Source: an uncultured Oxalicibacterium sp. (lineage in GTDB: Bacteria; Pseudomonadota; Gammaproteobacteria; Burkholderiales; Burkholderiaceae_D). Taken from it: DNA of 61,479 nucleotides. Under the pieces are notes generated by a model, which saw only the letters and a program-made list of their open reading frames with translations, was not told the DNA's origin and did no database searches. Each line of letters starts with the position of its first letter. The stretch's first letter is position 1. Positions 8,228 to 61,479 of the stretch are shown piece by piece. A program made the translations under genes and the position numbers. Location: contig NZ_CAJYMD010000040.1 of the NCBI RefSeq assembly GCF_913776015.1, positions 1 through 61,479 on the forward strand. The letters are read 5' to 3'.

Positions 8228-8230
8228 ACC

Positions 8231-8294
8231 GGCGGCCCGTTTTCATTCATTTATCCAAAACGTGATGCCGCCCGTCCTGGCGGCATTGTTTTTT
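8231..8294 (+). promoter_or_regulatory. Transcription attenuator upstream of trpS
   Basis: The terminator is an 8-bp stem ATGCCGCC (8265-8272) / GGCGGCAT (8279-8286) followed by a T tract (8289-8294). GGCGGC at 8231-8236, right after the leader-peptide stop, is perfectly complementary to GCCGCC at 8267-8272 and can form the antiterminator. CGCC at 8221-8224, within the region a stalled ribosome would cover, can pair with GGCG at 8231-8234 and would release the terminator when translation is unimpeded. These are the three mutually exclusive pairings expected of trp-type attenuation. Confidence 0.82.
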
Positions 8295-8336
8295 GGCACA
8301 GCAGGATTGGCGGCAAACTGAACAACCGGAGCACCC

Positions 8337-9365
8337 ATGTCCCTGAATGCATCGTCGAGCAATACCCCTCCCATCGTTCTGACCGGCGATCGTCCGACCG
8401 GCCCATTGCACCTCGGCCACTACATCGGCTCGCTGAAGTCGCGCGTCGAATTGCAGCACACGACGCAGCAATTCATCCTGCTGGCCGATACGCAAGCGAT
8501 GACGGACAATGTCGGCCGCCACCAGCGCGTGACCGAGAACGTGATGGAAGTCGCACTCGATTATCTGGCCGTCGGTATCGACCCGGAGAAATCAACGATC
8601 TTCATTCAGTCGCAAGTGCGCGAACTCTACGAGTTGTCGATGGTGTTGCTGAATCTGGTGACGGTATCGCGACTCGAACGTAACCCCACCATCAAGGAAG
8701 AAATCCGCTTGCGCGGTTTCGAGCGCGACATTCCGGCTGGTTTCCTGACCTATCCGGTTAGCCAGGCTGCCGACATCACAGCCTTCAAGGCGACGCTGGT
8801 GCCGGTTGGTAACGACCAGTTGCCGATGATCGAGCAAACCAACGAACTCGTGCGCCGCTTCAACAATGTGGTCGGCAAGGAAATTCTGGTCGAGTGCAAG
8901 GAAATGCTGTCGGCCACTAGCCGCCTGCCCGGCATCGATGGCAAGGCCAAGATGAGCAAATCGCTCGGCAATGCAATCCAGTTGGGTTCGACACCTGCCG
9001 AGATCAAGAAAGCCGTCAACAATATGTACACGGACCCGAATCACCTGCGCGTCGAAGATCCGGGCCAGGTCGAAGGCAACGTCGTGTTCTCTTTCCTCGA
9101 TGCCTTCGATCCGAACAAGGACGAACTCGAAGAACTGAAAGCGCACTATCGTCGCGGTGGCCTGGGTGACAGTGTGGTCAAGCGTCGTCTGGAAGCGCAA
9201 CTACAGGCAATGATCGAGCCGATCCGCACTCGTCGCGAGGAATTTGCCAAGGACAAGGGCGAAGTGCTGGCGATGCTCAAACGCGGTACCGAACGTGCGC
9301 GCACAGTTGCCGCGAAAACGCTGGATGAAGTGAATGCGTCGATGGGCCTCAACTACTTCGACTGA
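8337..9365 (+). CDS. trpS: Tryptophanyl-tRNA synthetase
   Basis: A 342-residue class Ic aminoacyl-tRNA synthetase that charges tRNA-Trp. The HIGH-type motif is [13 protein letters not shown] in the first 35 residues, and KMSKS lies near residues 204-208. The ATG at 8337 is preceded by a CGGAG Shine-Dalgarno. The leader upstream contains a Trp-codon peptide and an attenuator, so low charged tRNA-Trp should raise expression. A perfect hairpin terminator follows. Confidence 0.97.
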
Positions 9366-9391
9366 GCAAGACGAAGCATAAGAAAAATAAG

Positions 9392-9420
9392 AAAAGGCGA
9401 TGGCATCCATCGCCTTTTTT
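9392..9420. terminator. Bidirectional terminator between trpS and the CSD-DUF1294 gene
   Basis: A 12-bp stem AAAAGGCGATGG / CCATCGCCTTTT with a 3-nt loop, flanked by T on the plus strand and by A-rich sequence that reads as T on the minus strand. It can serve both convergent genes. Confidence 0.88.
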
Positions 9421-9450
9421 ATTACGTCGACAACCTGCAGCCGCGTTCGT

Positions 9451-10071
9451 CTACCCGGCAAACATGGCCGCGCGCAATGCCGTGCCATATGAAGAAAAAA
9501 GCCAGCAGACCGCCGCCAGGTGCAACAACACCGTGATCTTGTACATCGTCTGGAATGACGATTTGCCCGTTTTGTGGTGCAAGCGCGTCTGCGCCAACAA
9601 GCCGGCAGGCCAGCCCCCCATCAGGTCGAACAGGTGCAAACGTATTTCCGGTGTACGCCATGTCGCGTTGCGCGCCGCTTTCTTGTCGAGGGCATAAGCG
9701 ACATAGGTGAGCAGATTGATGGTTGCCAGATAACCCAAGGCTTTCCACGATACGCCACCGAGAATGACGGCGATGCAGACGATCGTCAGATAAAACGCTC
9801 CCAGCCAACCCCATATGCTGCCCTGGCCTGCGCGAAGGGAAAGTCGTGGTGCCCCATGCGCTATCGCATCAGCAAATTGGGCTTGCTGCGCACATTCACG
9901 ACCATTTTCAAAACCCGGCACATAGGTAACGACATCGCCCAGCGCGGGACGCCGCGCACGACGCGCGAATGCACTGATATGCAGGAACACACGCTTGCCA
10001 CTGCCATTTTGCGTGATGAAGCCGAAACCCTGTTCGTCACGCCATTCCGTGATCTTGCCCTGATAGCGCAT
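9451..10071 (-). CDS. Cold-shock domain plus DUF1294 membrane protein
   Basis: A 206-residue fusion. Residues 1-70 are a cold-shock/OB domain (GKITEWRDEQGFGFITQNGSGKRVFLHISAF, containing the RNP-1-like GFGFI and RNP-2-like VFLHIS). The rest is a DUF1294 membrane domain with about three to four hydrophobic segments and the motif YALDKKAARNATWRTPE. The role is unknown; the layout suggests a membrane-anchored nucleic-acid binder. Its start is only 2 bp after the murB stop, so it is co-transcribed downstream of murB. Confidence 0.88.
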   Translation of the reverse strand: MRYQGKITEWRDEQGFGFITQNGSGKRVFLHISAFARRARRPALGDVVTYVPGFENGRECAQQAQFADAIAHGAPRLSLRAGQGSIWGWLGAFYLTIVCIAVILGGVSWKALGYLATINLLTYVAYALDKKAARNATWRTPEIRLHLFDLMGGWPAGLLAQTRLHHKTGKSSFQTMYKITVLLHLAAVCWLFSSYGTALRAAMFAG

Positions 10072-10073
10072 GG

Positions 10074-11105
10074 TCAGAGAAACACCGGCTCGGGTTCCAG
10101 CGTCACGCCGAAACGGTCATGCACGTCCGACTGAATTGCCTGCGACAGCGCGACGACATCGGCACCGGAAGCACCGCCACGATTGACCAGTACAAGCGCC
10201 TGATTCTCGTGCACACCAGCAGCACCGGCAATACGCCCTTTCCAGCCGCAGCGATCAATCAGCCAGCCGGCAGCCAGCTTGAACGTACCATCGGCTTGCG
10301 GATAGTGCACGAGATCGGGATGCGCCTGCAGCAAGGCTTCGCATTCGAGCGGTGTCACCACGGGATTCTTGAAGAAGCTGCCGGCATTACCGATCTTGCG
10401 TGGATCAGGCAATTTGCGTGAACGAATCGCGATGACCGCATCGGCAACCTGCCGTGGCGAAGCGGACGTCGCGGGCCCACCTGTTTCGCGCTCCAGCATA
10501 TCGTGCAATTCCTTGTACCCTACTACGGGTTGCCACTCTGCAGGATGCGGGCAAAGGAACGTCACCGACAAAACCAGCCAATGCCCGGGATGATGTTTGA
10601 AAATGCTGTCACGATAGGCAAAGCGACAATCGCTGGCCGCCAATTGCAGAATCTCGCCACTCTGCCAATCCAGCACTTCAACCGATGCGATACGCTCCAT
10701 GACTTCCAGACCATAGGCGCCGATATTCTGGATGGGCGATGCGCCAACGGTACCCGGAATCAGGGCCAGATTTTCGAGGCCCGGCACCTGCTGATCAATC
10801 AGATGCATGACGAACGCATGCCAGTTCTCGCCAGCGGCGGCCGTAACACGAATGCCGGCCGCATGCGTACGATCGATAGCCACACCACGCAAATCGACCT
10901 GAATGGTTAAGCCTGGCAAATCGCGCGTCAGCAGGATATTGCTGCCACCGCCCAGAAAGAATGCACCGCCTTCGGCGCGGCAATGCGCCATCAGATCGTC
11001 AAGCTGGGAACGTTGCTGCAGTACGGCAAACCGCTCTGCCTTGGCGTTGATGCCAAACGTGTTCAACGCACCCAGCGATTTCGCGGTTTCTATCGAAAGT
11101 TTCAT
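10074..11105 (-). CDS. murB: UDP-N-acetylenolpyruvoylglucosamine reductase
   Basis: A 343-residue FAD enzyme that reduces UDP-GlcNAc-enolpyruvate to UDP-MurNAc with NADPH, an early cytoplasmic step of peptidoglycan synthesis. FAD-binding segments GGGSNILL and IPGTVGASPIQNIGAYG are present, as is the catalytic-serine region GNAGSFFKNP. The extended C-terminal domain makes it type I, like E. coli MurB. It is divergent from yajQ and is followed directly by the CSD-DUF1294 gene. Confidence 0.96.
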   Translation of the reverse strand: MKLSIETAKSLGALNTFGINAKAERFAVLQQRSQLDDLMAHCRAEGGAFFLGGGSNILLTRDLPGLTIQVDLRGVAIDRTHAAGIRVTAAAGENWHAFVMHLIDQQVPGLENLALIPGTVGASPIQNIGAYGLEVMERIASVEVLDWQSGEILQLAASDCRFAYRDSIFKHHPGHWLVLSVTFLCPHPAEWQPVVGYKELHDMLERETGGPATSASPRQVADAVIAIRSRKLPDPRKIGNAGSFFKNPVVTPLECEALLQAHPDLVHYPQADGTFKLAAGWLIDRCGWKGRIAGAAGVHENQALVLVNRGGASGADVVALSQAIQSDVHDRFGVTLEPEPVFL

Positions 11106-11273
11106 AGCCCGTGATTATAGGCGCGTCCAGGCAAGCTGGCTTGACCCGAGCTGGTCCACACCATTCCACGCCATACGCGATGAATCGCAAGGATTTTGCA
11201 GACTGCAACGAACAAACGACGCAGTCGGCACGCTACAATGCGCGCTGCACAAGCAAGCTACAGGAGAAACACC

Positions 11274-49122: not shown

Positions 49123-50211
49123 TCAGTACCGTTCAAGCCAATGCGCGTAGGGCGCCGGCAAGGTCCACGACGCACGATCAATCTTCAATTCTTTCGCCGC
49201 AAAATAAGCCCAGTGTGGATTGGCAAGATGCGCGCGACCGACCATGACAACGTCGAGTTGCTGATCACTGACCACGCGTTCGGCGATTTCCGGCGTTCCA
49301 AAACCCCATGCCGATGAAACCGGCACATTTGCCTCGCGACGCACGCGCTCCGCAATCGGTCCGAGAAACGCCGGTCCCCATGGAATAGACGTATCAGGAA
49401 TCGTGAACCCGATGCTCACGCTGATCATGTCCATGCCCGAAGCCTTGAACTCCCGCACCAGGCCAATCGACTCAAGCAGAGTCTGCTCGTCGCGCCCATC
49501 GTATTCAATCACGCCAAACCGGACGGTCAACGGCAGATTCTCCGGCCAGACTTCCCGCACGGCGCGTAGCGTTTCCAGAAGAAAGCGCGCACGGTTCTCG
49601 ACGCTGCCGCCATAGATATCATCACGTTGATTGGCGTGCGCCGAAAAGAAACTCTGCGCCAGATAGCCATGCGCAAAATGCAATTCCAGCCATTCGAAAC
49701 CGACATCGCGTGCGCGTTTTGCCGCATCCACGAAGTTCTGACGTACACGGGCGATGTCTTCTTGCGTCATTGCACGTGGCTGCCGTGGCAAACCTTTACC
49801 GAAGGCGATTGCCGATGGCGCAATCGTTTCCCAACCGCGCGGATCGTTTTCGGCAAGGTGATCGTCGCCTTCCCATGGCCGATTCGCGCTCGCCTTTCTG
49901 CCCGCATGGGCAATCTGGATACCAGGCACTGCACCTGCTTCCTTGATGGCATGCACGATCGGTGCGAATGCCTGCGCCAGATCGTCATTCCAGATCCCGG
50001 TACAACCGGGCGTAATACGACCCTCTGCCGACACTGCCGTCGCTTCGACGATCACAAGCCCGGCACCACCACGTGCCATGCTGGCGTAATGCGAGAGATG
50101 CCAATCATTGACGCGTCCATCGACGGCAAGATACTGGCACATGGGTGGAATGGCGATGCGGTTGCGCAGCGTGACATCTTTAAGCGTAAAGGGTTGAAAC
50201 AAAGCAGACAT
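49123..50211 (-). CDS. Old yellow enzyme-family NADH:flavin oxidoreductase (YqjM-like)
   Basis: A 362-residue FMN-dependent ene-reductase with a TIM-barrel fold. The flavin-proximal motif PPMCQYL carries the Cys typical of the YqjM (class II) branch, and QIAHAGRKAS and LHFAHGYLAQSFFS are also present. Such enzymes reduce activated C=C bonds or nitro groups, often of electrophilic toxicants. The ATG at 50211 (MSALFQPFTLKDVTLRNRI) is chosen; frame upstream runs through the divergent promoter and lacks similarity. It is divergent from an ArsR-type regulator that probably controls it. Confidence 0.93.
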   Translation of the reverse strand: MSALFQPFTLKDVTLRNRIAIPPMCQYLAVDGRVNDWHLSHYASMARGGAGLVIVEATAVSAEGRITPGCTGIWNDDLAQAFAPIVHAIKEAGAVPGIQIAHAGRKASANRPWEGDDHLAENDPRGWETIAPSAIAFGKGLPRQPRAMTQEDIARVRQNFVDAAKRARDVGFEWLELHFAHGYLAQSFFSAHANQRDDIYGGSVENRARFLLETLRAVREVWPENLPLTVRFGVIEYDGRDEQTLLESIGLVREFKASGMDMISVSIGFTIPDTSIPWGPAFLGPIAERVRREANVPVSSAWGFGTPEIAERVVSDQQLDVVMVGRAHLANPHWAYFAAKELKIDRASWTLPAPYAHWLERY

Positions 50212-50299: not shown

Positions 50300-50617
50300 A
50301 TGATGTTGCTCATGCGCCCCTTCAAACACCCTGCTGCCAGCGAACTTTCCCTCGAACGCGTGCTATATGCGTTGAGCGACTCCATTCGTCTGGACATTGT
50401 TCGCCATCTCGCTCGCGTCGAATGCGCTTCCTGTGGCGAACTTGATGGCGGCAGGCCGAAGTCCACGGTGTCGCATCATTTCAAGGTGCTACGCGAAGCA
50501 GGACTGGTGCATACGGAAAACACCGGCACCACGCACATGAATACCCTGCGCCGTACCGAGATCGAAAGCCGATTTCCGGGATTGCTGGATGCCATTCTGT
50601 CGCAGAAAAATACCTGA
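50300..50617 (+). CDS. ArsR-family transcriptional regulator
   Basis: A 105-residue winged-helix DNA-binding protein. The recognition region STVSHHFKVLREAGLVHTENTGT is typical of ArsR/SmtB repressors. Two cysteines (VECASCGEL) could sense metal or thiol-reactive compounds, but the canonical CxC metal motif is absent. It is divergent from the old yellow enzyme gene, a common pairing in which electrophiles relieve repression. Start choice is uncertain (ATG at 50300, 50303 or 50312). Confidence 0.88.
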   Translation: MMLLMRPFKHPAASELSLERVLYALSDSIRLDIVRHLARVECASCGELDGGRPKSTVSHHFKVLREAGLVHTENTGTTHMNTLRRTEIESRFPGLLDAILSQKNT

Positions 50618-50678: not shown

Positions 50679-51458
50679 TCAAATTGCGTCTGGCGCGAAC
50701 CACTCCTCGATCTGCCAGACCGATGATGCACCATCCCAATCCAGCACCGCCCGCTCGCCATCACGGCGCAGATTGACGGCAATCTGTTTTCCTTCCAGCC
50801 ACGGCAAGGTGGCATGTTGCACGGTCCAGCCTGTATCGGTACGAAGACCAAACGCAATCTCGAAATCCAGCAAGGCACGCAACTGTTCGTCATCGAAGCT
50901 GGACAAATCCGTATCCAATGGCAGATCGGAAGGAAATGCCTTACGGCGGGCGCGTGCGTGCATGACGTAAGGCCCGGCAACCAACAGTAGTCGTAGCGCA
51001 CTTCCTTCCTCGCGTCGCAGAACCAACGCGCCTTGCTCAGATGTGGCTTGATGCACCCAATGTTCCAGGTAATCGGCACAGACACCCTGTTCGATCAACA
51101 GGCCTGCGGAGAAACGCATGGCCCCCACGTCGGGTAGCGACGCCGGTGGCTGATAATCGATCAGGCGATGCCAGCGACAAATGTCGTCCTGTCCATTTGC
51201 ATCGATCTGTGTGATGCCGGCAAAACCCTGCTGGCATGCGAGCGATTCAAGCTGGGCACGATCACATTCGGCCAGGGACGACACGCCCGAGAAATCACCG
51301 CGCCTTGCAGGAATGCGAATATCGGCATGCCAGCGTGCAGTCTGTAACCAGAAGACGACAGTCGAGACATCTTCCATCGCAGCCGTCTTCAGCAAGGTAC
51401 GTCGCCAGACACCACGATAACGCGCGGGAACCGGCGGCAACGAGAGAAGCGCCGTCAT
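50679..51458 (-). CDS. Uncharacterised protein, possibly HRI1-like
   Basis: A 259-residue soluble protein without signal peptide or membrane segments. The stretch YRGVWRRTLL...VVFWLQTARWHADIRIPARR and the C-terminal DTGWTVQHATLPWLEGKQI suggest a beta-rich, lipocalin-like fold and recall the HRI1 family, named after a yeast protein of unknown function. This assignment is tentative. The ATG at 51458 overlaps the stop of the metallo-beta-lactamase gene (ATGA). It is the last gene of the riboswitch-controlled operon. Confidence 0.75.
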   Translation of the reverse strand: MTALLSLPPVPARYRGVWRRTLLKTAAMEDVSTVVFWLQTARWHADIRIPARRGDFSGVSSLAECDRAQLESLACQQGFAGITQIDANGQDDICRWHRLIDYQPPASLPDVGAMRFSAGLLIEQGVCADYLEHWVHQATSEQGALVLRREEGSALRLLLVAGPYVMHARARRKAFPSDLPLDTDLSSFDDEQLRALLDFEIAFGLRTDTGWTVQHATLPWLEGKQIAVNLRRDGERAVLDWDGASSVWQIEEWFAPDAI

Positions 51459-52249
51459 TCGTGCCACGCAGGAAAAACTTGCAGCGTTCGGTAAAACGCA
51501 AAATCATGATTGGGCGAGATGACGGCGTTGTCCTGCCTGGCCAGTTGCTTGAGTTTGCGAATACTATCGACGGCAAGATCGTGACGATCGCACCAGCAGG
51601 CACCGGGCGCGATCTCATCCTCGATGTTCTCACGCAAATCGGCCGCATCGCCGGCGAGCAAAACCGGCGGACCTTTCGGTAGCTCGATCCACATTGACAT
51701 ATGGCCTGCCGTATGGCCGGGTGTCGCAATTGCCTGCACACCATCGGTCAATGCATACTCGCCGTCGGTCACATGCAGCGTGCCATGCGCAGTGAAATCG
51801 TCGGCAAATACCGCCACGTCGTTTCCCGCACGTGCCGCATCGAGCTCGTCTTTCTGCACATGGATCTCGGCACCGCAGCCGCAGGCCTTGAGTTCGCCCA
51901 GACCACCGACATGATCGAAATGCAGATGCCCGACGAAGATCACATCCACATCAGCGGCAGTCAGGCCAAGCCGTGCCAGATGCGAAGGAATGCGCTGTTC
52001 CTCAGTCATTTCAGGCGCACCGAAAACAAAGGTCGCCGGATCGTAATAGCGTGCACGCAGTTGCGGATCGTGAATCTTGCTGTAATCGCAGCCGACGTCG
52101 TACAGAATGCGACCATTCGCGGTTTCGATCAGATAGGCAAGAATCGGCGCATCAATCATTTGCCCCGCTCCGCGACCATGCGTGGAAATCGACTTGTCGT
52201 AGCGATGCGTAGCCGTCAGCAAAGGCCATAATTTTCTGACACTGGTCAT
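51455..52249 (-). CDS. Metallo-beta-lactamase-fold hydrolase, AHL-lactonase-like
   Basis: A 264-residue zinc hydrolase. The signature HLHFDH (108-113) matches HxHxDH of N-acyl-homoserine lactonases (AiiA/AttM type). Further ligands occur in TPGHTAGHMSMW, LLAGDAADL and the final SPNHDF. Family members open lactone rings or cleave thioesters; no signal peptide is seen, so it is cytoplasmic. Located 17 bp after the cysteine hydrolase and overlapping the HRI1-like gene, in an operon preceded by a guanidine-type riboswitch, which argues for a catabolic substrate and not quorum quenching. The start at 52249 lacks a strong Shine-Dalgarno. Confidence 0.87.
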   Translation of the reverse strand: MTSVRKLWPLLTATHRYDKSISTHGRGAGQMIDAPILAYLIETANGRILYDVGCDYSKIHDPQLRARYYDPATFVFGAPEMTEEQRIPSHLARLGLTAADVDVIFVGHLHFDHVGGLGELKACGCGAEIHVQKDELDAARAGNDVAVFADDFTAHGTLHVTDGEYALTDGVQAIATPGHTAGHMSMWIELPKGPPVLLAGDAADLRENIEDEIAPGACWCDRHDLAVDSIRKLKQLARQDNAVISPNHDFAFYRTLQVFPAWHE

Positions 52250-52266
52250 GGCAGTAAGACTTCGGC

Positions 52267-52917
52267 CTATGTGCGAATGCCGCGTACGATCTCCGCCGTC
52301 GATGCCACACGGCCGAAGATACCGCCTTCCACCGCGATCATGGCCAGTGCAGCTTCCTGCAAGGCAGGATTGCTGGCAGCACAACCATCACGCACAGTTA
52401 CACAGGCAAAACCGCGATCGATGGCTTCTCGCAACGTCGAGTGAACACATACTTCCGTCGTCACGCCGCAGATGATCAGGGTTTCGATACGCTGCGCCAG
52501 AATCGATTCGAGAGATGTGCGATGAAAGGCACCGTAGCCGGGCTTGTCGATCACATCTTCATGTTCAAGCGGCTTTAATGCATCAATGATGTCGTGCCCG
52601 TATTCGCCACGCACCAATAGCCGGCCAAGCGGACCACGACTACCGATTTCGGCACCCGCCTGTCGACTGCGCAACAGCTTCTTCGGCGGGCAATCCGAGA
52701 GATCCGGCAGATGCCCCTCACGCGTATGGACCACACGCATGCCGGACGAACGTGCTGCCTGCAACAGGATGGCAATCCTGTCGATGACCGATGACAGGTT
52801 GCCGACATCGAGACCGGCTTGTGCCGCATAACCTCCGGCATCACAGAAATCACGCTGCATGTCGATGACGAGCAATGCCGTGGTTTCCGGATCAAAAATC
52901 AAAGGCGTTGTATTCAT
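52267..52917 (-). CDS. Isochorismatase-like cysteine hydrolase, biuret/guanylurea hydrolase type
   Basis: A 216-residue cysteine hydrolase with the triad Asp19, Lys125, Cys157 (LVIDMQRDF, VIDKPGYGAF, GVTTEVCVHSTLREA). The segments DMQRDFCDAGGY, VVHTREGHLPDLSDCPPKK and AGAEIGSRGPLGRLLVRGE closely follow biuret amidohydrolase (BiuH) as I remember it. Related enzymes cleave triuret or guanylurea. Biuret would give allophanate and ammonia; guanylurea would give guanidine, which links to the riboswitch upstream and the carboxylase locus nearby. The specific substrate cannot be fixed from sequence. The ATG overlaps the preceding small gene's stop by 4 bp. Confidence 0.87.
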   Translation of the reverse strand: MNTTPLIFDPETTALLVIDMQRDFCDAGGYAAQAGLDVGNLSSVIDRIAILLQAARSSGMRVVHTREGHLPDLSDCPPKKLLRSRQAGAEIGSRGPLGRLLVRGEYGHDIIDALKPLEHEDVIDKPGYGAFHRTSLESILAQRIETLIICGVTTEVCVHSTLREAIDRGFACVTVRDGCAASNPALQEAALAMIAVEGGIFGRVASTAEIVRGIRT

Positions 52918-53162
52918 GTGGTTTGTCCCATCTGCTCCATGTCTTCTCCATTATTCGCTTCCACGAGGGTGGCTGCGGTGACCAATACACCACCGCCCGA
53001 AGCCTTCAGGCCCATCACTTCACCACCGGTCAAAACGGCAGAGACCATGGCTACCAGCAACACAAGCACCTGCAAAAGGTCGGGCAGCAGCCGCGAAGTA
53101 CTGAAGCGCGTATCTGACGTTGCTATCGCAAGCATTCCTATCTGCTTGGCCTGCGGCCTCAA
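52914..53162 (-). CDS. Small single-span membrane protein in the riboswitch operon
   Basis: An 82-codon frame from a TTG that overlaps the desaturase stop to a TGA that overlaps the hydrolase ATG by 4 bp; an internal ATG at 53135 would give 73 residues. It has one hydrophobic helix (LLQVLVLLVAMVSAVLTGGEV) and a short acidic C-terminal tail. I recognise no family. It fills an otherwise empty 240-bp gap in a tightly packed operon, and its two boundary overlaps are the main evidence that it is real. Shine-Dalgarno sites are poor for both starts. Confidence 0.5.
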   Translation of the reverse strand: MRPQAKQIGMLAIATSDTRFSTSRLLPDLLQVLVLLVAMVSAVLTGGEVMGLKASGGGVLVTAATLVEANNGEDMEQMGQTT

Positions 53163-54190
53163 ACCGCCGTCAGAAAGGACACACCCACTGCTCCGAGAAA
53201 ACCATCTGCACGTCCCTGCTGCCCCGGTGAAAGGACCTCGCCATAATCCTGCGCCATGACGCGTCTGACACGATGGCGGTGAAAGCTCAGCAGCAACTCA
53301 CGCACTGGAATGACTTGCGGACAACGATCGCCGAGCTGCTTGCGATGAAAAGCCGGTAGCTGGTGCCACGGCATGGCCGGCCGCTCGTGATGTGCATTGT
53401 GGAAGCCAAAATTCAGCCACAGCATGTTGAGGATGCGGCTCTCGATCCCGACGACATTGCTATAGGTATTGCATTGTTCGTAGGCACGGTCACGTATCTT
53501 GTCGCTAGGAATCGGTGTGTCATCGGCAATCGGATACGCATCGTAGGTGTGCTGAAAGCAATCTGCAAAGCGCAAGATCGTGATGAACACCAGATACGCT
53601 ACACAGTAAAGCAACCAGCCGAACGGGGCATACCAGGCAAAAACAGCGAATGCCGTGACACGGACGGTGACAATAGCGATCATGCGCCAGCGTTTTGCTG
53701 CTGGCGCACCGCGACGAAATGGCAAGACCATTACGACCACATGCATCAACAATTCGACAGCCGGAATGTAGAGCCATTCCAGGGCAAGCACGAGCTTCAG
53801 CAACACGGGATGCGCACGTAGAAAGCCCTGTACATCGAAAGTGATCACGTCCGCGCGTTCGACGTGGTGACGCATGTGCTTGCGGCGCAAGTCCTCAAAA
53901 CGCGCATAACAACTGCCGTTGATCCATGACATCAGCGTACCCCAGCGGGTATTGGCCTTGGCCGATTTGAAGATGGCGTGATGTGCAAACTCGTGAATGA
54001 AGTAGGCGGACCACGTCAACGTCAGTACGACCAAAGGGAAGCCGATAACATACGCAAACCACGATGGCACCATCAAGAGCGCGACACCGATTGGATAACC
54101 GAGCAGCACGACACCCAATGCAAGTACATTGGGCATCACACCGTCCTTGTAACGAAAATAGCCGGCAATCATGATCACATCGGTCGGCAT
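53159..54190 (-). CDS. Membrane di-iron fatty-acid-desaturase/hydroxylase-family enzyme
   Basis: A 343-residue integral membrane oxidoreductase. Three histidine clusters, HEFAHH (66-71), HMRHH (105-109) and HNAHH (264-268), are the ligands of the membrane di-iron family, which includes desaturases and AlkB-type hydroxylases. At least five hydrophobic stretches are seen. It differs from the housekeeping desaturase at 12577-13767 in box spacing and lacks that gene's C-terminal tail. Being the second gene of a riboswitch-controlled operon with a hydrolase suggests oxidation of a small substrate and not fatty-acid metabolism, but this is inference. The start is the ATG at 54190; an ATG at 54172 is possible. 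Confidence 0.88.
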   Translation of the reverse strand: MPTDVIMIAGYFRYKDGVMPNVLALGVVLLGYPIGVALLMVPSWFAYVIGFPLVVLTLTWSAYFIHEFAHHAIFKSAKANTRWGTLMSWINGSCYARFEDLRRKHMRHHVERADVITFDVQGFLRAHPVLLKLVLALEWLYIPAVELLMHVVVMVLPFRRGAPAAKRWRMIAIVTVRVTAFAVFAWYAPFGWLLYCVAYLVFITILRFADCFQHTYDAYPIADDTPIPSDKIRDRAYEQCNTYSNVVGIESRILNMLWLNFGFHNAHHERPAMPWHQLPAFHRKQLGDRCPQVIPVRELLLSFHRHRVRRVMAQDYGEVLSPGQQGRADGFLGAVGVSFLTAV

Positions 54191-54211
54191 CCAACACCGA
54201 CCGTCCTTTCC

Positions 54212-55246
54212 TTATTTACCTGCCTGAATGGCTTTGATGAACTGCGGTGCGATGGTGTCGGTCGTGGATGGAATCTGACTGATCTGTCCCTTGTTCTTCA
54301 GAATGGTCGCGATGATCTCGCCACTCGTGTAATACGACGTCGTCTTGGTACCTGGCTCGAATGCCTGCATCATTTCCGCAAGCGGGATGTTGTAGACGCC
54401 AGCCAGTTGTTCTTTGACTTCTGCTGCTGAAATACCCATGAACTTGCCAATGATCTTGGCCGATTCATCGGGATGCGACTTCATGTAAGCCAAGCCATCG
54501 AGATAGGCACGAATCACACCTTCGATTTGCTTGGGGTTCGACGCGATGTATTTGTCATTGAAGACCAGCACATCGGCGATCAATCCCGGTGCTTGCCTGG
54601 ACGAATAAAGAACGTGGAATTTCTTGCCGCCACCTTGACCGAGGATTTGCGACACACTGGGTTCATAAGTCACACCCGCCAGCAGACCAGATGCCATCGC
54701 AGCCGGCACGGCTTCCGGTGTCACGCTAACTGCTTGAATATCGTTTGCTGTCAGTCCATTCGATTTCAATGCATACGACAGCAGAAATTCACATGGCGAT
54801 AAAGGGTTGAAACCTACTTTCTTGCCTTTCAGATCCGCCACGCGCGTGATGCTGTTGGCAGCCATGATGGCATCGCCCCCATTCGAATAATCGATCGGCA
54901 TCACCACCTTTTGCGAGATTCCCTTGGCGACCTGCCCGATGACCTGATCGTAGGTTTCCATTGCCCCCTGAATCGAGCCGCCTGCCAAGGCAGGTGGAAT
55001 CAAGGCCGGATCGGCGAATACATTGAGCTTCACGCTCAGATCGTATTTTTTGAAAAAGTCTTTACTCTCTGCAACATAGAACGGGCCATAACCAATCCAG
55101 ACAACGGTGCCGATATTGAGCTTGGTTGCTGCCTGCGACATCCCATGCGAAAGCAGCAATGCCACTGCAAGCACGCAAAGCCGCAGCAGTGGCATGGCAC
55201 GTGAGCGGACAAGGAAGGAAGACGGCGTGAAATACGGGAATGACAT
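54212..55246 (-). CDS. ABC transporter substrate-binding protein, NitT/TauT (NMT1/THI5-like) family
   Basis: A 344-residue periplasmic binding protein with a signal peptide (LLRLCVLAVALLLSHGMSQAA). Family features are VWIGYGPFYVAESKDFFKKYDL near the mature N terminus, ALAGGSIQGAMETYDQVIG, LKGKKVGFNPLSPCEFLL and VLVFNDKYIASNPKQIEGV. Relatives bind nitrate, taurine, pyrimidine precursors or similar small compounds, and guanidine-I riboswitches often precede such transporters. No permease or ATPase gene is in the window. It is the first gene of the operon; AGGAG lies 7 nt before the ATG at 55246. Confidence 0.92.
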   Translation of the reverse strand: MSFPYFTPSSFLVRSRAMPLLRLCVLAVALLLSHGMSQAATKLNIGTVVWIGYGPFYVAESKDFFKKYDLSVKLNVFADPALIPPALAGGSIQGAMETYDQVIGQVAKGISQKVVMPIDYSNGGDAIMAANSITRVADLKGKKVGFNPLSPCEFLLSYALKSNGLTANDIQAVSVTPEAVPAAMASGLLAGVTYEPSVSQILGQGGGKKFHVLYSSRQAPGLIADVLVFNDKYIASNPKQIEGVIRAYLDGLAYMKSHPDESAKIIGKFMGISAAEVKEQLAGVYNIPLAEMMQAFEPGTKTTSYYTSGEIIATILKNKGQISQIPSTTDTIAPQFIKAIQAGK

Positions 55247-55275: not shown

Positions 55276-55410
55276 GGGAGAACGTTTGCGATCGTTCTCC
55301 CGGGCTTTTATCCCTCCGTGGAGCCCCGCATCAGCGAGGCCGGAACACTCTCGGACCAGACATTCGCTGCACTTATGCAACGAATCGGAACCCTAGTCTT
55401 CCTGATAATG
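55276..55410 (-). ncRNA. Guanidine-I (ykkC class) riboswitch
   Basis: Read on the minus strand, the leader contains the three conserved blocks of the ykkC aptamer in order: CTAGGGTTCCG (55396-55386), CTGGTCCGAGAG (55359-55348), and GGAGGGATAAAAGCCCGGG (within 55319-55296). Downstream GGGAGAACG (55301-55293) can pair with CGTTCTCCC (55284-55276) in a 9-bp hairpin that competes with the aptamer's 3' strand. That gives a plausible ON switch, although no good U tract follows, so translation control or weak termination are alternatives. The ykkC class includes guanidine, ppGpp, PRPP and nucleotide subtypes; the nearby guanidine carboxylase-type genes and the binding-protein gene it precedes favour guanidine-I. 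Confidence 0.9.
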
Positions 55411-55458: not shown

Positions 55459-55474
55459 AGCAATTACGATGCCA
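55459..55474 (-). promoter_or_regulatory. Sigma-54 (-24/-12) promoter upstream of the riboswitch
   Basis: On the minus strand TGGCATCGTAATTGCT fits the sigma-54 consensus TGGCAC-N5-TTGCW in every position but one, with the required GG-N10-GC spacing. Transcription would begin about 12 nt after the -12 GC, near 55448, roughly 40-50 nt before the aptamer. A short inverted repeat ATGCC-AGCC-GGCAT at 55525-55538, upstream, might bind an enhancer protein. Sigma-54 control would tie the operon to nitrogen limitation. Confidence 0.65.
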
Positions 55475-55612: not shown

Positions 55613-56509
55613 TCAGAAGCCGTAACTCAAACCGGCAACGATGCGGTTGCTCTGGCTGATACCGAAACGGTTTTCACCACCGATGATGCCGGTCAGGCTC
55701 CACGTAATACCGGTATTGGCAATCGGCTGCGAGAGGCCGACGATCAAATGCCGGAAGCCACCGCTGGTCGGTGCATTGCCTGCCACGCAACCTGAAACGG
55801 CAAAGCTTTCGCCGGCAGCACATGCTGTTCCCAGATACGTATCGTAGGTCCCCAGATACTTGCCTTCCTTGTTGTAGGTGTAGTAACCGAGCGATGCCGT
55901 GAACATCAGCGAATTGACCAAAGGCTTGCTGTAATTAAGCGTCCAGTAGGTGTCCCCTTTGTTACCCCATACCGTATCGTTGAGCAAGGTCTGTGCACTC
56001 AGTTCGAAATCCGAATAGCTGACAGCCAGCTTGCTTTCCACGCCATTGGCGTTCTTGCCGTTGTAGTAGGCATAACCGATCAGGCCGGCGTTGTAACCGA
56101 AATCACCAACCTTGCCCTTGTATCCGGCATAGAAATCGTTTTCGATGGATTTATCCTGCTGAAAATCCAGCGTGCCGCTGCGATCCGAATAGGAACGCCC
56201 AAGCTGCTTGTACGAATAATTGATCGTCGAAGCCCAGTAACCCGCGTAAAACCCGGATGGATGGGTGTAATCGAGCCCCCATTGCAAGGCCGCACGATTG
56301 GACTCTGGCGCATCGGCACCTTCATTACCCAAACCCGGCTTGCTCGGACCATAGGTGGTGGTGATACCGCGCAACACATACTTGCTTACGACATCTACGT
56401 GACCTGTCCAACTGGGAGCGTCGCTCCCTTCCTGCGCATGAGCACCGGCCCCTGCTGCAAACATCCCCACACTTGCGAGCGCCAGAACGATGGAACGATA
56501 GCGTGACAT
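55613..56509 (-). CDS. TorF-family putative porin
   Basis: A 298-residue outer-membrane beta-barrel protein. A signal peptide (IVLALASVGMFAAGAGAHAQ) is followed by alternating amphipathic strands such as WTGHVDVVSKYVLRGIT, FYAGYWASTINYSY, ELDFYAGYKGK-type turns, and a terminal strand NRIVAGLSYGF ending in Phe. The opening WxGxVDVVSKYVLRGxT is characteristic of this conserved family of unknown substrate. AAGGGAG precedes the ATG. It lies 57 bp after the carboxylase gene and is probably co-transcribed, which suggests a role in substrate entry. Confidence 0.88.
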   Translation of the reverse strand: MSRYRSIVLALASVGMFAAGAGAHAQEGSDAPSWTGHVDVVSKYVLRGITTTYGPSKPGLGNEGADAPESNRAALQWGLDYTHPSGFYAGYWASTINYSYKQLGRSYSDRSGTLDFQQDKSIENDFYAGYKGKVGDFGYNAGLIGYAYYNGKNANGVESKLAVSYSDFELSAQTLLNDTVWGNKGDTYWTLNYSKPLVNSLMFTASLGYYTYNKEGKYLGTYDTYLGTACAAGESFAVSGCVAGNAPTSGGFRHLIVGLSQPIANTGITWSLTGIIGGENRFGISQSNRIVAGLSYGF

Positions 56510-56566: not shown

Positions 56567-59500
56567 TTACTGCACACTTTCCTGAAGCACCGCCAGATGC
56601 TGCCCACCCGCAACGGGCGTCCCTTCGCCAACCAGCCATTCGGTCAATACGCCGCCCTCGTGCGCAACCAGCGGAATTTCCATCTTCATGGATTCGAGAA
56701 TGGCGATCGTTTCACCCTCGGCGACGGTTTCGCCGACCTGCTTGACGATCTTCCAGACACTGCCGGGCACTACGGCAGACAGATACCGACTGCCCGGCGG
56801 CAGATCGACAGGTGCTGCGTTGCTACTGGCCGCTTCTTCACCGACGAACTCGGCCTGACCACTGACACGCCAGCGTTCACGCTCCGCCTCGAATGCAGCT
56901 TGCTGCTTTTGCTTGAAGGTAGAGATCGACGACTGTTCGTCGGACAGGAAACGGTTGTAATCGGCCAGCGAAAACGTGGTCTCTTCGATGCGAACATCGA
57001 AACGCCCCAGCGGAAAATCGCGACGATGTTCGAGCAGTGTTTCTTCATCCACTTCATAGAAACGAATCTGATCGAAGAAGCGCAGCAACCAGGGCTTGCC
57101 ATCACGGAAGCTGGCAGTCTGCCGATAGCGATTCCACATCTGGATCGTGCGTCCGACGAACTGATAGCCGCCCGGACCTTCCATACCGTAGACGCAGAGA
57201 TAGGCTCCGCCGATACCAACCGCGTTTTCTGGTGTCCACGTACGTGCCGGGTTGTACTTCGTGGTGACGAGGCGATGCCGCGGATCGACAGGTGTGGCAA
57301 CCGGCGCACCGAGATAGACATCGCCCAGGCCCAGCACCATGTAGCTGGCATTGAACAGCACGTTGTAGACATCGTCGATGCTGTCGAGACCGTTGATGCG
57401 ACGAATGAACTCGATATTGCTTGGGCACCATGGCGCATCCGGACGCACCGTGGTCTGGTACTTCTGAATCGCCAGGCGCGTCTGGGCATCGTTCCATGCC
57501 AGCGGCAGATGCACGATGCGCGACGGCACCACCATCTGATCGACGGCAGGCAATGCCTTTGCCAATGCATCGACTTGCGCAATCAATGCCGCGCCCGAAA
57601 TCTGGCGGTGATCGAAGTGCACCTGCAGCGAACGAATACCCGGCGTGAGATCAACCAGACCGTGCAGGCTGGCCGATTCGATCGCCGTCATCAGGGCATG
57701 CACACGAAAACGCAGGTTGATATCGAGTACGAGTTCACCGAACTCGACAAGCAGGTAATCGTCGCCTGCACGTCGATAGACGATGCGCGTACCGTCATCG
57801 AGGCAGGTTTCATCGATCACCGCCGGCGCATGGTGCCCCGCTTCGCTTTCGGTCGGCACGAATATTGGTGGCGCCAATTCACCCGATGCAACTGCAAAAA
57901 CCTGTTCCATGCGCGCGCGCATCGTTGCCGCCTCATCAGGCAGTACGCGTACGAACCGCACGGTATCGCCCGGCTTTAATTGCCCCATCTTCCACAAATC
58001 GGCGGAGACGATGACGGCTGGACAAACGAAGCCGCCCAGGCTCGGGCCATCCGGACCGAGAATGACCGGCATATCGCCCGTAAAATCGATGGAGCCGATG
58101 GCATAGGCGTTGTCGTGGATGTTCGACGGATGCAGGCCCGCTTCGCCGCCATCGGTACGCGCCCAGCGTGGCTTGGGACCGATCAGGCGCACGCCGGTAC
58201 GACTGGAATTGAAATGCACCTGCCAGTCTGTACTGAAGAACATCTGAATGTCTTCATCGGTAAAGAAGTCGGGCGCGCCGTGCGGGCCATAATGCACGGC
58301 GATTTTCCATTCATGACCGTACTGCGGGATCGAGGATGGTTCCGGCGTGTTGATCCTGGCTTGGGTAGGCTTGAGCTTCAATACATCGCCGGCACGCACG
58401 GCACGACCACCATGCCCGCCGAAATTACCGAGCGTGAAGGTAGCGCGACTGTCCAGATAGGCTGGCGCGTCCAGCCCACCCGCAAACGCCAGATAAGCAC
58501 GTACGCCGGCACCCGTGACGCTACCGCAACGCAACGTTTCGCCGGCCTTGATCTCATGCGCCTGCCAGTTTGGCAGCGTGCGCTTGCCATGTGGCCCGTT
58601 GACCGTGGCACCCATATCGGCGCCTGCCAGGGCGATCGTGCAATCGCAATTGAAGGACAGCGTCGCGCCCTGCAACGTCAGTTCAAGTGCTGCAGCGTCT
58701 TCAGCGTTACCGAGGAGATGATTGGCAAAACGATGTGCATACGAATCCATCGGTCCCGAGGGCGGAATACCGACCGCCCACAATCCCAAACGTCCCGGGT
58801 AATCCTGCACCGTCGTTTGGATACCGCCGTCGATCACATCAACGGTCAGCGGCTGATAGACCATCTCGGCCAGCATTTGCGTGATCTGCTGGCCGGCAAC
58901 GAACGGCGCGTGTGCCAGGATCGTATCGAGATAAGCCAGATTGGTCTGAATGCCATCGATCCGCGTGGTCTGCAATGCAGTACGTAAGGCCGTAATCGAT
59001 TCTTCCCGACTCTGGCTGGCCACGATCAACTTGACCAGCAAAGGATCGTAATACGGGCTGACCGTGACGCCGCGTTCGACCCAGGTATCGACGCGCAGGC
59101 CTTCGGCGAATTCCACTGCCGTCAGTACACCGGATGAAGGTTGAAAATTCTTACCCGGATCTTCGGCGTACACGCGCAGTTGCATCGCATGCCCATGCGA
59201 CTGAAGTGCATCCTGCGCAGGCAGCGTAAAGCCCTCCGTCGCTGCGCGAATCATCCACTCGACAAGATCGACGCCGAATACTTCTTCGGTCACGCCATGT
59301 TCGACCTGCAGACGTGTATTCACTTCGAGGAAATAGAACGCCCCGGTGTCGGCATCCAGCACGTATTCGACCGTACCGGCCGAGAGATAAGACAGGGACG
59401 ATGCAAGACGCACAGCCGTCTCTGCCAGTGCCTGTCGCGTCGCGTCCGACAAGCCGGGGGCTGGCGTTTCCTCAATGACCTTCTGGTTACGACGTTGCAC

Positions 59501-60187
59501 CGAGCAATCGCGCTCGCCGAGCGAGACGACATTGCCGCGCCCATCGCCGAAGATTTGTACTTCAACGTGACGCGCACGCTGCACGAACTTCTCGAGATAG
59601 ATGCCGCCGTTCTTGAAGTTGTTTTCCGACAGATGGCGCACCGATGCAAACGCCGCTTGCAACTCGTCATCGTTGTGGCAAAGGCGCATGCCGATACCGC
59701 CACCGCCTGCCGTACTCTTAAGCATGACCGGATAACCGATGCGCGCGGCTTCGCGTACGGCTTCCGCTTCATCTGCCAGCAATCCCGTGCCCGGCAACAA
59801 GGGCACGTCCGCTTTCAAGGCCAACTCGCGTGCCGTGTGCTTGAGGCCGAAGGCACGCATCTGTTCGGGCGTCGGACCAATGAAAACGATGCCGGCTTGC
59901 GCACAGCTTTCCGCAAAGGCAGCGTTCTCGCTCATGAAACCGTAGCCCGGATGAATGGCCTGCACACCCAATTCGCGCGCGACTTCCAGAATGCGCTCAG
60001 CGCAGAGATAGCTCTCGCTGGCCGGGGCAGGCCCGACACATACCGCTTCATCGGCCAGTCGCACATGCAGGGATTCGATATCCGCTTCCGAATAAATCGC
60101 CACCGTGCGAATGCCCATCGCTCGCGCCGTGCGGATGACACGACAAGCGATCTCACCACGATTGGCGATCAGGATCTTGTTGAACAT
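56567..60187 (-). CDS. Biotin-dependent urea/guanidine carboxylase
   Basis: A 1206-residue multidomain carboxylase. Residues 1-450 are biotin carboxylase (ILIANRGEIACRV, ATP-grasp loop KSTAGGGGIGMR). A KipA/AHS2 domain (VIDGGIQTTVQDYPGRLG, GIPPSGPMDSYAHRFANHLL) and a KipI/AHS1 domain (DLTPGIRSLQVHFD) form the carboxyltransferase. The C terminus is a biotinyl domain with ESMKM, biotin on Lys1168. Family members carboxylate urea to allophanate or guanidine to carboxyguanidine. The two DUF1989 genes directly upstream are the hallmark of guanidine carboxylase operons, so guanidine is the more likely substrate. The usual downstream allophanate hydrolase is missing. Confidence 0.93.
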   Translation of the reverse strand: MFNKILIANRGEIACRVIRTARAMGIRTVAIYSEADIESLHVRLADEAVCVGPAPASESYLCAERILEVARELGVQAIHPGYGFMSENAAFAESCAQAGIVFIGPTPEQMRAFGLKHTARELALKADVPLLPGTGLLADEAEAVREAARIGYPVMLKSTAGGGGIGMRLCHNDDELQAAFASVRHLSENNFKNGGIYLEKFVQRARHVEVQIFGDGRGNVVSLGERDCSVQRRNQKVIEETPAPGLSDATRQALAETAVRLASSLSYLSAGTVEYVLDADTGAFYFLEVNTRLQVEHGVTEEVFGVDLVEWMIRAATEGFTLPAQDALQSHGHAMQLRVYAEDPGKNFQPSSGVLTAVEFAEGLRVDTWVERGVTVSPYYDPLLVKLIVASQSREESITALRTALQTTRIDGIQTNLAYLDTILAHAPFVAGQQITQMLAEMVYQPLTVDVIDGGIQTTVQDYPGRLGLWAVGIPPSGPMDSYAHRFANHLLGNAEDAAALELTLQGATLSFNCDCTIALAGADMGATVNGPHGKRTLPNWQAHEIKAGETLRCGSVTGAGVRAYLAFAGGLDAPAYLDSRATFTLGNFGGHGGRAVRAGDVLKLKPTQARINTPEPSSIPQYGHEWKIAVHYGPHGAPDFFTDEDIQMFFSTDWQVHFNSSRTGVRLIGPKPRWARTDGGEAGLHPSNIHDNAYAIGSIDFTGDMPVILGPDGPSLGGFVCPAVIVSADLWKMGQLKPGDTVRFVRVLPDEAATMRARMEQVFAVASGELAPPIFVPTESEAGHHAPAVIDETCLDDGTRIVYRRAGDDYLLVEFGELVLDINLRFRVHALMTAIESASLHGLVDLTPGIRSLQVHFDHRQISGAALIAQVDALAKALPAVDQMVVPSRIVHLPLAWNDAQTRLAIQKYQTTVRPDAPWCPSNIEFIRRINGLDSIDDVYNVLFNASYMVLGLGDVYLGAPVATPVDPRHRLVTTKYNPARTWTPENAVGIGGAYLCVYGMEGPGGYQFVGRTIQMWNRYRQTASFRDGKPWLLRFFDQIRFYEVDEETLLEHRRDFPLGRFDVRIEETTFSLADYNRFLSDEQSSISTFKQKQQAAFEAERERWRVSGQAEFVGEEAASSNAAPVDLPPGSRYLSAVVPGSVWKIVKQVGETVAEGETIAILESMKMEIPLVAHEGGVLTEWLVGEGTPVAGGQHLAVLQESVQ

Positions 60188-60865: not shown

Positions 60866-61479
60866 CTAGCGATAAACGAGTTCGGTGTTGTAGTAGCCGC
60901 GGCGGTTTTCCGGGCAGGACAAGCGACAACTATCCGTCGGACCAGCGGTACCGCTTTCCCAGGCGACGAGGCCGACTTTCTTGGGTGTGTACGTAGCCGA
61001 TGGGTCGAGCGGATGCGGCGCCGTGGAGATCAGGAGCAAGGTGTCCATCTCGAAACGCAACTCGACGAAGTCGCCCTTCTTGCTGTGATCGCTGACGAAC
61101 TGAAAGCGCCCCCTTTCATCCACCATCACCTTGGAAAACAGGTTGAGATTCGGCACCAGATCGCGCAGTCCCAGTCCCCATTTCCCCATTTCGATGAGCA
61201 AGCTGTCCTTGCCGTTGCGCGCCATAGCATTGCGATGTTCCTGATAGCGACGTTCGCCATATTTTTTCTGCACGAGCGCCGCATCCGACACACCGCACAA
61301 CGGGTCATGCCAGCCGACCGTGTCGCGCGAGATCGACGCGAGGATGCGGCCCATATCGGAATACAGCACGTTGCCAGCCGTCAGATGCGCGGTGTGCTGG
61401 GCCTTGAGCGAATCAGGCAGGTTCAAACGTTCCGTCCGTTCGTCGGCGCGATACATCAGGACAGACGCGTTGGCACCAC
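60866..61479 (-). CDS. DUF1989 protein, carboxyguanidine deiminase subunit (urea carboxylase-associated protein 1), partial
   Basis: Partner of the preceding DUF1989 gene, cut at its 5' end by the window edge. The frame runs open to the edge: residues GANASVL precede the internal Met at 61456, and ERTERLNLPDSLKAQHTAHLTAGNVLYSDMGRIL is the conserved core. The true start is therefore outside the window. Further motifs are HDPLCGVSDAALV, LRDLVPNLNLFSKV and C-terminal CRLSCPENRRGYYNTELVY. A transporter and another riboswitch would be expected upstream. Confidence 0.9.
   Translation of the reverse strand, partial: GANASVLMYRADERTERLNLPDSLKAQHTAHLTAGNVLYSDMGRILASISRDTVGWHDPLCGVSDAALVQKKYGERRYQEHRNAMARNGKDSLLIEMGKWGLGLRDLVPNLNLFSKVMVDERGRFQFVSDHSKKGDFVELRFEMDTLLLISTAPHPLDPSATYTPKKVGLVAWESGTAGPTDSCRLSCPENRRGYYNTELVYR

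What the first reader, a model, noticed from the sequence alone, without database searches (positions are those of the whole stretch)
50679..55246. Candidate undescribed nitrogen-compound catabolic operon of six genes
Binding protein, di-iron desaturase/hydroxylase, small membrane protein, BiuH/GuuH-like cysteine hydrolase, MBL-fold lactonase and HRI1-like protein run on one strand with 4-bp overlaps at three junctions and gaps of 17-21 bp at the other two. With a guanidine-type riboswitch and a sigma-54 promoter, this looks like a regulated pathway that oxidises and then hydrolyses a guanidine- or urea-derived compound (for example an alkylguanidine, guanylurea or biuret). I know of no described pathway with this gene set.
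Basis: partly seen in the sequence, partly recalled or inferred. Interest (0 to 1): 0.88.

Follow-up and report, generated by a model that had tools for sequence, protein, structure and literature searches.

The report
Riboswitch operon freeing guanidine from derivatives
A set of neighbouring bacterial genes, apparently switched on by guanidine, looks like a pathway that strips guanidine, a nitrogen-rich molecule, out of larger compounds, using an oxygen-handling membrane enzyme that I did not find linked to guanidine before; one of the six reported genes is only a broken remnant.

Summary
A Guanidine-I riboswitch (83.8 bits) and a positionally conserved sigma-54 site precede the genes. Two enzymes can be tied to recent biochemistry. 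The "HRI1-like" protein is 39% identical to MgdL, the N-(hydroxymethyl)guanidine lyase of Vreelandella boliviensis (2025), with the catalytic Asp and Arg aligned. The "BiuH/GuuH-like" hydrolase is 65.5% identical to the tested guanylurea hydrolase of Pseudomonas mendocina MET; two biuret-binding residues of BiuH are replaced (Lys145 to Tyr, Gln215 to Glu), as in that enzyme. Outside this operon type, MgdL-type genes often sit beside a 2-oxoglutarate dioxygenase; here the partner is a membrane di-iron enzyme of the desaturase/AlkB fold. I infer that it hydroxylates N-alkylguanidines and that the lyase then frees guanidine for the guanidine carboxylase genes next door. Relatives, mostly Burkholderiales, carry a longer operon (two SDR dehydrogenases, EamA transporter, creatininase). 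The window's copy is reduced: its "small membrane protein" is the C-terminal remnant of the EamA gene. The hydroxylase substrate and the MBL role remain unproven. My ten searches of a partial open-access library found no description of this gene set.

The parts
55459..55474 (-). sigma-54 type promoter site TGGCATCGTAATTGCT, starting 67 bp upstream of the riboswitch
   Evidence: 10 of 12 consensus positions; same kind of site upstream of the riboswitch in 69 of 71 relatives, 0.9% of shuffled sequences; not significant from the window alone
55295..55407 (-). Guanidine-I riboswitch aptamer; a hairpin that begins with its last bases GGGAG follows it
   Evidence: RF00442, 83.8 bits; hairpin GGGAGAACG/CGTTCTCCC -15.8 kcal/mol, reached by 0 of 100 shuffles
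54212..55246 (-). SBP: periplasmic substrate-binding protein (NMT1/SsuA-like), probably of a guanidine-type ABC importer
   Evidence: Pfam NMT1 E 6.6e-26; in L077 it follows permease and ATPase of the guanidine importer type; in 12 loci that permease follows a riboswitch with no SBP between
53159..54190 (-). DES: membrane di-iron enzyme (fatty acid desaturase / AlkB fold), proposed N-alkylguanidine hydroxylase
52914..53162 (-). C-terminal remnant of an EamA (DMT) transporter gene, not an intact gene
   Evidence: profile of 61 EamA relatives: 33.6 bits, positions 220-287 of 293
52267..52917 (-). ICH: guanylurea hydrolase type cysteine amidohydrolase (isochorismatase fold)
   Evidence: 65.5% identity over 203 aa to the pMET-2 guanylurea hydrolase; triad D19/K125/C157 kept, BiuH Lys145 -> Tyr128 and Gln215 -> Glu197
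51455..52249 (-). MBL-fold hydrolase, AiiA-lactonase-like, substrate unknown
   Evidence: Pfam Lactamase_B E 1.2e-21, AiiA 5eh9 E 2.9e-34; HLHFDH at residue 108
50679..51467 (-). HRI: MgdL-family (HRI1 fold) protein, proposed N-(hydroxyalkyl)guanidine lyase; likely start ATG 51458
56567..60187 (-). neighbouring pathway: urea carboxylase family protein, by linkage guanidine carboxylase (gca)
   Evidence: TIGR02712 1838.9 bits; directly behind the two genes below; another member sits beside an allophanate hydrolase on contig C8
60206..60856 (-). neighbouring pathway: DUF1989 protein, urea_degr_1 type (carboxyguanidine deiminase subunit; enzyme name from the literature, not from the model)
   Evidence: TIGR03424 343.9 bits, PF09347 E 3.9e-72
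60866..61477 (-). neighbouring pathway: DUF1989 protein, urea_degr_2 type (second carboxyguanidine deiminase subunit), cut by the contig end
   Evidence: TIGR03425 291.3 bits, PF09347 E 2.5e-48

Best explanation
The operon feeds a guanidine-degradation pathway with guanidine freed from substituted guanidines. Nitrogen limitation (sigma-54, presumably with NtrC) and free guanidine (riboswitch) together switch it on. The SBP delivers the compound to a guanidine-type ABC importer. The di-iron membrane enzyme DES hydroxylates the carbon next to the guanidine nitrogen of an N-alkylguanidine; the MgdL-type protein HRI splits the resulting hemiaminal into guanidine and an aldehyde. In parallel ICH hydrolyses guanylurea (or another N-acylguanidine) to guanidine. 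[quoted passage not shown] Shown here: riboswitch, conserved promoter-like site and gene order, homology and active-site residues of HRI and ICH, fold of DES. Inferred: every activity in this organism, the DES substrate, the NtrC role, the SBP ligand. Not assigned: MBL. This genome carries a reduced version that has lost most of its EamA gene.
For: Riboswitch, and 0.8-1.7 kb upstream of DES in 69 of 72 relatives with enough upstream sequence (loci chosen by DES similarity alone). Sigma-54 site in 69 of 71. HRI in the MgdL family: 39% identity, E 3e-40, catalytic Asp and Arg aligned (residues from PMC12508155 section 8). Oxygenase partner of HRI: of 12 HRI matches in a phylum sample, 5 lie in DES operons, 5 beside a 2OG-Fe(II) dioxygenase gene (one of these, L164, on the other strand), 2 with neither seen. 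ICH: 65.5% to a tested guanylurea hydrolase; Tyr and Glu at BiuH positions 145 and 215 in 55 of 55 ICH sequences kept. Linkage to cgd/gca genes in many relatives. Importer link.
Against: No activity is shown for any protein here. For DES no solved structure matched by sequence profile, and the one plasmid homologue (Gloeothece, 32.4%) is annotated only as fatty acid desaturase. MgdL was narrow in the published assays: it did not speed decay of hydroxylated dimethylguanidine, so action on larger groups is uncertain. The MBL gene has no role in this scheme. CREAT, SDRs and a whole EamA of the longer operon are missing here, yet the scheme gives the SDRs and CREAT no place either. Of 54 relatives 2 lack HRI and 7 lack ICH. 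Of 72, 3 lack the riboswitch in that place; in the first set L048 and L049 have SBP-DES-EamA-MBL without a Guanidine-I riboswitch.
Confidence: 0.64

Rival explanations
1. The full operon degrades creatinine or a creatinine-like cyclic guanidine: CREAT opens the ring, DES hydroxylates the N-substituent (or the ring, with an SDR oxidising the alcohol), and HRI or ICH frees (methyl)guanidine. The window copy is a truncated branch that handles only open-chain compounds. This overlaps with the best explanation; it names the substrate.
For: CREAT of relatives passes the NCBIfam creatininase equivalog cut-off (359.9 of 235 bits, L041), matches P. putida creatininase with 256 bits and keeps EQHGPH in 61 of 61 sequences kept; present in 47 of 54 relatives, SDR1 in 42, SDR2 in 47.
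Against: Creatininase W174 is Phe or Tyr and D175 is Ala in all 61 (that these positions touch the substrate is recalled). CREAT is absent in the window and in 7 of 54 relatives; the genome's nearest homologue is 28% identical.
Confidence: 0.22
2. DES is a lipid desaturase that adapts the membrane to guanidine stress; the operon is a guanidine tolerance unit (EamA exporter) and the hydrolases act on unrelated by-products.
For: Pfam calls it FA_desaturase; EamA transporter in 46 of 54 relatives.
Against: Stable linkage to an MgdL-type protein and a guanylurea-hydrolase-type enzyme, and the same MgdL-type gene beside 2OG dioxygenases elsewhere; importer-type SBP in 53 of 54.
Confidence: 0.08
3. 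The operon serves guanylurea and biguanide-type compounds only; DES demethylates N-methyl biguanides or N-methylguanylurea before ICH acts.
For: ICH is close to the guanylurea hydrolase of a metformin-degrading strain, whose cluster also has an SBP, a permease and an ATPase of the same type.
Against: 7 of 54 relatives with DES have no ICH; many relatives come from lineages not tied to drug pollution, so a drug origin is unlikely (inference).
Confidence: 0.1
4. In this genome the operon is decaying and no longer works.
For: EamA reduced to a remnant; SDRs and CREAT absent from the operon.
Against: SBP, DES, ICH, MBL and HRI are open frames with conserved active-site residues; L070 and L077 have ICH-MBL-HRI directly after DES, without EamA.
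Confidence: 0.12

Closest known systems
MgdH/MgdL methylguanidine demethylation in Vreelandella boliviensis (Sinn et al. 2025, PMC12508155)
   Same: Guanidine-I riboswitch control, link to guanidine carboxylase genes, oxygenase plus homologous lyase (HRI 39% identical to MgdL)
   Different: MgdH is a 2OG/Fe(II) dioxygenase; here an unrelated membrane di-iron enzyme takes that place, with an added guanylurea-hydrolase-type enzyme, MBL and binding protein and, in relatives, SDRs, EamA and creatininase
Guanylurea hydrolase of Pseudomonas mendocina MET, pMET-2 (PMC9800807)
   Same: 65.5% identity to ICH, same Tyr and Glu at BiuH positions 145 and 215
   Different: Five-gene run with SBP, deaminase, permease, ATPase; no riboswitch in the 18.6 kb fetched; no HRI match in the plasmid collection and no DES match there except Gloeothece
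Biuret hydrolase BiuH and triuret hydrolase TrtA
   Same: Isochorismatase-like fold and Asp/Lys/Cys triad
   Different: Lys145 and Gln215 (BiuH numbering), needed for full activity on biuret, are Tyr and Glu
Alkane monooxygenase AlkB / membrane fatty acid desaturases
   Same: Membrane fold and three His boxes
   Different: Genomic context is guanidine metabolism; a non-lipid substrate is inferred
Yeast Hri1 (YLR301w)
   Different: 12% identity; the PDB title calls it uncharacterized

Membership tests
Guanidine-I riboswitch (RF00442) | covariance model score above gathering | tested here: met
   83.8 vs 63 bits, full length 1-107
Guanidine-I riboswitch (RF00442) | binds guanidine and controls expression | not testable with these tools
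   needs in-line probing or a reporter
MgdL N-(hydroxymethyl)guanidine lyase | sequence homology over most of the length | tested here: met
   39% over 227 columns, E 3e-40; 35% over 239 to a second Vreelandella copy, L172
MgdL N-(hydroxymethyl)guanidine lyase | catalytic Asp49 and Arg51 | tested here: met
   aligned, and invariant in 16 hand-picked homologues
MgdL N-(hydroxymethyl)guanidine lyase | beta-barrel | tested here: met
   model pLDDT 93.4; lipocalin-like barrels among matches
MgdL N-(hydroxymethyl)guanidine lyase | lyase activity | not testable with these tools
   -
MgdH 2OG dioxygenase | 2OG-Fe(II) oxygenase domain in the partner enzyme | tested here: not met
   DES hits only FA_desaturase in Pfam
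Membrane di-iron desaturase/hydroxylase | three His boxes | tested here: met
   invariant in 21 sequences
Membrane di-iron desaturase/hydroxylase | AlkB/desaturase fold | tested here: met
Guanylurea hydrolase (pMET-2 type) | catalytic triad Asp/Lys/Cys | tested here: met
   D19, K125, C157
Guanylurea hydrolase (pMET-2 type) | Tyr and Glu at BiuH positions 145 and 215 (my signature, from one tested enzyme) | tested here: met
Guanylurea hydrolase (pMET-2 type) | activity on guanylurea | not testable with these tools
Biuret hydrolase BiuH (NF050097) | NCBIfam cut-off | tested here: not met
   254 of 370 bits
Biuret hydrolase BiuH (NF050097) | Lys145 and Gln215 | tested here: not met
   Tyr128, Glu197
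AiiA-type lactonase (NF045699) | NCBIfam cut-off | tested here: not met
   142.2 of 375 bits; HxHxDH motif present
EamA transporter | intact protein of about 300 aa | tested here: not met
   82 aa, matching the last quarter only
Fungal HRI1 (PF16815) | Pfam gathering score | tested here: not met
   15 of 27 bits
Creatininase (TIGR04448), for CREAT of relatives only | NCBIfam cut-off | tested here: met
   359.9 of 235 bits for L041; the window has no such gene in the operon

The most novel reading that the evidence does not exclude
A widespread aerobic route, undescribed as far as I could search, in Burkholderiales and some other Pseudomonadota: a membrane di-iron hydroxylase and an MgdL-type lyase release guanidine from N-substituted guanidines, under joint control of nitrogen status and a guanidine riboswitch. 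In its nine-gene form it may turn creatinine, or a still unnamed natural cyclic guanidine, into guanidine. By fold, the uncharacterised yeast protein Hri1 could be a lyase of the same kind.
Probability: 0.4. Interest if true: 0.8.

Novelty: new variant of a known kind. Interest (0 to 1): 0.63.

Why it matters
Where natural guanidine comes from is an open question. This operon points to a second, unrelated kind of oxygenase that would free guanidine from larger compounds, in bacteria of several genera known from water and soil (habitats recalled, not tested). It gives testable activities for three proteins that annotation names desaturase, cysteine hydrolase and hypothetical protein, and a first functional clue for the HRI1 fold.

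Tried and rejected
Biuret as substrate of ICH: rejected on two binding residues. Small membrane protein as a gene: rejected. Sigma-54 site by window statistics alone: not significant; only conservation supports it. DES against PDB by sequence profile: no match. HRI against PDB by sequence: two matches at E 0.54 and 1. HRI of a relative (L133) in plasmids: no match.

Literature: ten searches. Those that bear on a guanidine riboswitch or guanylurea with a desaturase are 6, 33, 44, 50 and 108; 32 asked for creatininase, 49 for isochorismatase, 109 for HRI1. Papers that hold both words: in PMC12186494 and PMC11410670 (passages) 'desaturase' is the arginine desaturase NapI; in PMC2211319 (passages) it is a gene under a cobalamin riboswitch. 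PMC11018352, PMC10535843 and PMC8204229 were seen as listings only. The library lacks bioRxiv and most subscription papers; Nelson 2017, Sinn 2021 and Schneider 2020 were not read and could mention such genes. PMC7266159: passages only.

Weak points of the counts: the 80 loci are the best of 528 DES relatives, include near-duplicates (for example L124/L134 and L118/L128), and some are also genomes of the first set. Gene counts use tblastn at E 1e-8 and break at gaps over 1.5 kb. The sigma-54 control used single-base shuffles, which ignore relatedness. ICH and CREAT residue counts use only longer matches (55 ICH over 500 bases and 50% identity; 61 CREAT over 650 bases); weaker copies, such as two in L133, were left out. 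In the first set 25 loci were scanned with Rfam: 15 have Guanidine-I upstream of SBP-DES; 10 do not (L043 ends there, L048, L049, and L051-L057, whose best complete DES is a 41-47% paralogue). L058 and L059 were not scanned. The HRI/oxygenase count rests on 12 matches; the dioxygenase of L166 is a 268-aa frame behind a PhyH gene. The hairpin after the aptamer was folded in the window and 15 relatives I picked: a hairpin is predicted in all 16, but in L131 35 of 100 shuffles fold as well.

Because CREAT passed the creatininase cut-off I raised that rival from 0.15 to 0.22 and lowered the best explanation from 0.66 to 0.64.


Full report
WHAT IS THERE. A Guanidine-I riboswitch precedes them (55407-55295, 83.8 bits). 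Upstream on the same strand are two DUF1989 genes (TIGR03425 and TIGR03424), a urea carboxylase family gene and a TorF porin. The genome's other Guanidine-I riboswitch (contig C54) precedes an SBP, permease and ATPase close to the contig end. In relatives the same ATPase is followed by the same DUF1989 and carboxylase genes, so C54 and the window's end may be neighbours (inference). An allophanate hydrolase (809 bits) and another urea carboxylase (1926 bits) lie together on C8.

CONSERVATION. DES relatives occur in 23 of 300 genomes sampled in the order (E 1e-20 or better, own genome included) and in 11 of 369 in the class sample (E 1e-30, including the own genome and one of the order). An alignment of 21 DES proteins brought in 80 named loci, chosen by DES similarity only, mostly Burkholderiales by record title: Hydrogenophaga, Polaromonas, Rhodoferax, Aquabacterium, Noviherbaspirillum and others. 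A Guanidine-I model built from 17 sequences finds the riboswitch 0.8-1.7 kb upstream of DES in 69 of 72 loci with at least 1.7 kb upstream. Of the three others, L077 has it further upstream, in front of permease-ATPase-SBP-DES, and L129 and L130 have none.

OPERON CONTENT. In 54 loci with at least 6.5 kb downstream: SBP 53, SDR1 42, SDR2 47, EamA 46, creatininase (CREAT) 47, ICH 47, MBL 36, HRI 52. The commonest forms after DES are SDR1-SDR2-EamA-CREAT-ICH-HRI (16) and the same with MBL before HRI (16). Noviherbaspirillum (L103, L141) and two others (L102, L136) have EamA-ICH-MBL-HRI; L070 and L077 have ICH-MBL-HRI. L129 and L145 lack HRI. The window resembles the EamA-ICH-MBL-HRI form, but its EamA is cut: the 82-aa frame matches only positions 220-287 of a 293-position EamA profile. 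In L041 and L042 a GGDEF/EAL gene stands between MBL and HRI.

REGULATION. Within 160 bp upstream of the riboswitch, 69 of 71 loci have a site with at least 10 of 12 consensus positions, against 0.9% of shuffled sequences; they start 55-90 bp upstream. That NtrC drives it is inference. A hairpin that begins with the aptamer's last GGGAG is predicted in the window (-15.8 kcal/mol, 0 of 100 shuffles as low) and in the 15 relatives folded, less convincingly in L131. The window shows no clear U-run after it, so whether it acts on transcription or translation is open.

ICH IS OF THE GUANYLUREA HYDROLASE TYPE. It scores below the BiuH cut-off (254 of 370 bits). The four best of 351 plasmid records are Nitrosospira NRS527 (65.9%) and the Pseudomonas plasmids of KHPS1, P. 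hydrolytica and P. mendocina MET-2 (65.5%). PMC9800807 (passages read) reports the MET enzyme active on guanylurea (11 umol/min/mg) and nearly inactive on biuret (0.4 nmol/min/mg); it also says that this enzyme is only 44.8% identical to the first GuuH, so sequence alone does not fix the substrate. BiuH variants at Lys145 were inactive and Gln215 variants weakened (PMC5806882, passages); TrtA has both residues (PMC7948467, passages). In the window they are Tyr128 and Glu197. All 55 ICH sequences kept have the Tyr (54 as DKPGY, one as DKPRY) and the Glu. The MET enzyme has both changes. Losing a positive and gaining a negative side chain suits a guanidinium group (inference).

TRANSPORT. In 12 of 13 loci examined the guanidine-importer permease match starts 42-119 bp after a riboswitch, leaving no room for its own SBP (in the 13th, L082, nothing was found before the contig ends); in L077 the SBP follows permease and ATPase and precedes DES. 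So the SBP most likely serves this importer type. Its ligand is unknown; by sequence it weakly resembles sulfonate-binding proteins. In the window's genome the C54 importer has its own SBP.

WHAT IS NOT EXPLAINED. MBL is AiiA-like (E 2.9e-34) and absent in 18 of 54 relatives; I have no role for it. CREAT (relatives only) passes the creatininase cut-off (359.9 of 235 bits) and resembles P. putida creatininase (256 bits). It keeps EQHGPH in 61 of 61, but the residues at creatininase W174 and D175 differ in all 61 (the role of these positions is recalled). SDRs and CREAT suggest that the full operon handles a cyclic guanidine; creatinine is a serious candidate, but the SDRs, ICH and MBL are not needed for a simple creatinine route.

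NOVELTY. The riboswitch, the lyase family and the guanylurea hydrolase are known kinds. The pairing with a membrane di-iron enzyme and the conserved nine-gene operon were not found in ten paper searches, with the limits given under Tried and rejected. I file it as a new variant of a known kind.

Noticed in passing
window 49123-50211 (-) and 50300-50617 (+): Old-yellow-enzyme family oxidoreductase and an ArsR-type regulator, a divergent pair just downstream of the operon, apparently unrelated to it.
   Followed up: partly
window 55613-56509: TorF-family porin between the carboxylase gene and the riboswitch; a TorF homologue also lies between carboxylase and SBP in L068 and L131 and upstream of SBP in L132.
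   Followed up: partly
L163 (about 3600-10700): HRI/MgdL-type gene in a cluster with MBL, creatininase-family, EamA, SBP and glutamine-synthetase-like genes but no DES or dioxygenase seen.
   Followed up: partly
L039, L043, L046, L051-L053, L056: A second, 43-47% identical DES paralogue, in the same stretch as ICH and, in most of these loci, MBL.
   Followed up: no
plasmid records: BiuH/GuuH-like cysteine hydrolase (about 53% identical to ICH) on many Escherichia and some Klebsiella plasmids; role unknown.
   Followed up: no
PDB 3rby (yeast YLR301w/Hri1): The uncharacterised yeast Hri1 shares the fold of the MgdL family; whether the catalytic Asp/Arg pair is kept was not checked.
   Followed up: no
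L173 (pMET-2) 7540-11248: Metformin-strain guanylurea hydrolase sits in a five-gene run with SBP, deaminase, permease and ATPase; permease and ATPase are 57% and 59% identical to the window genome's C54 importer.
   Followed up: partly
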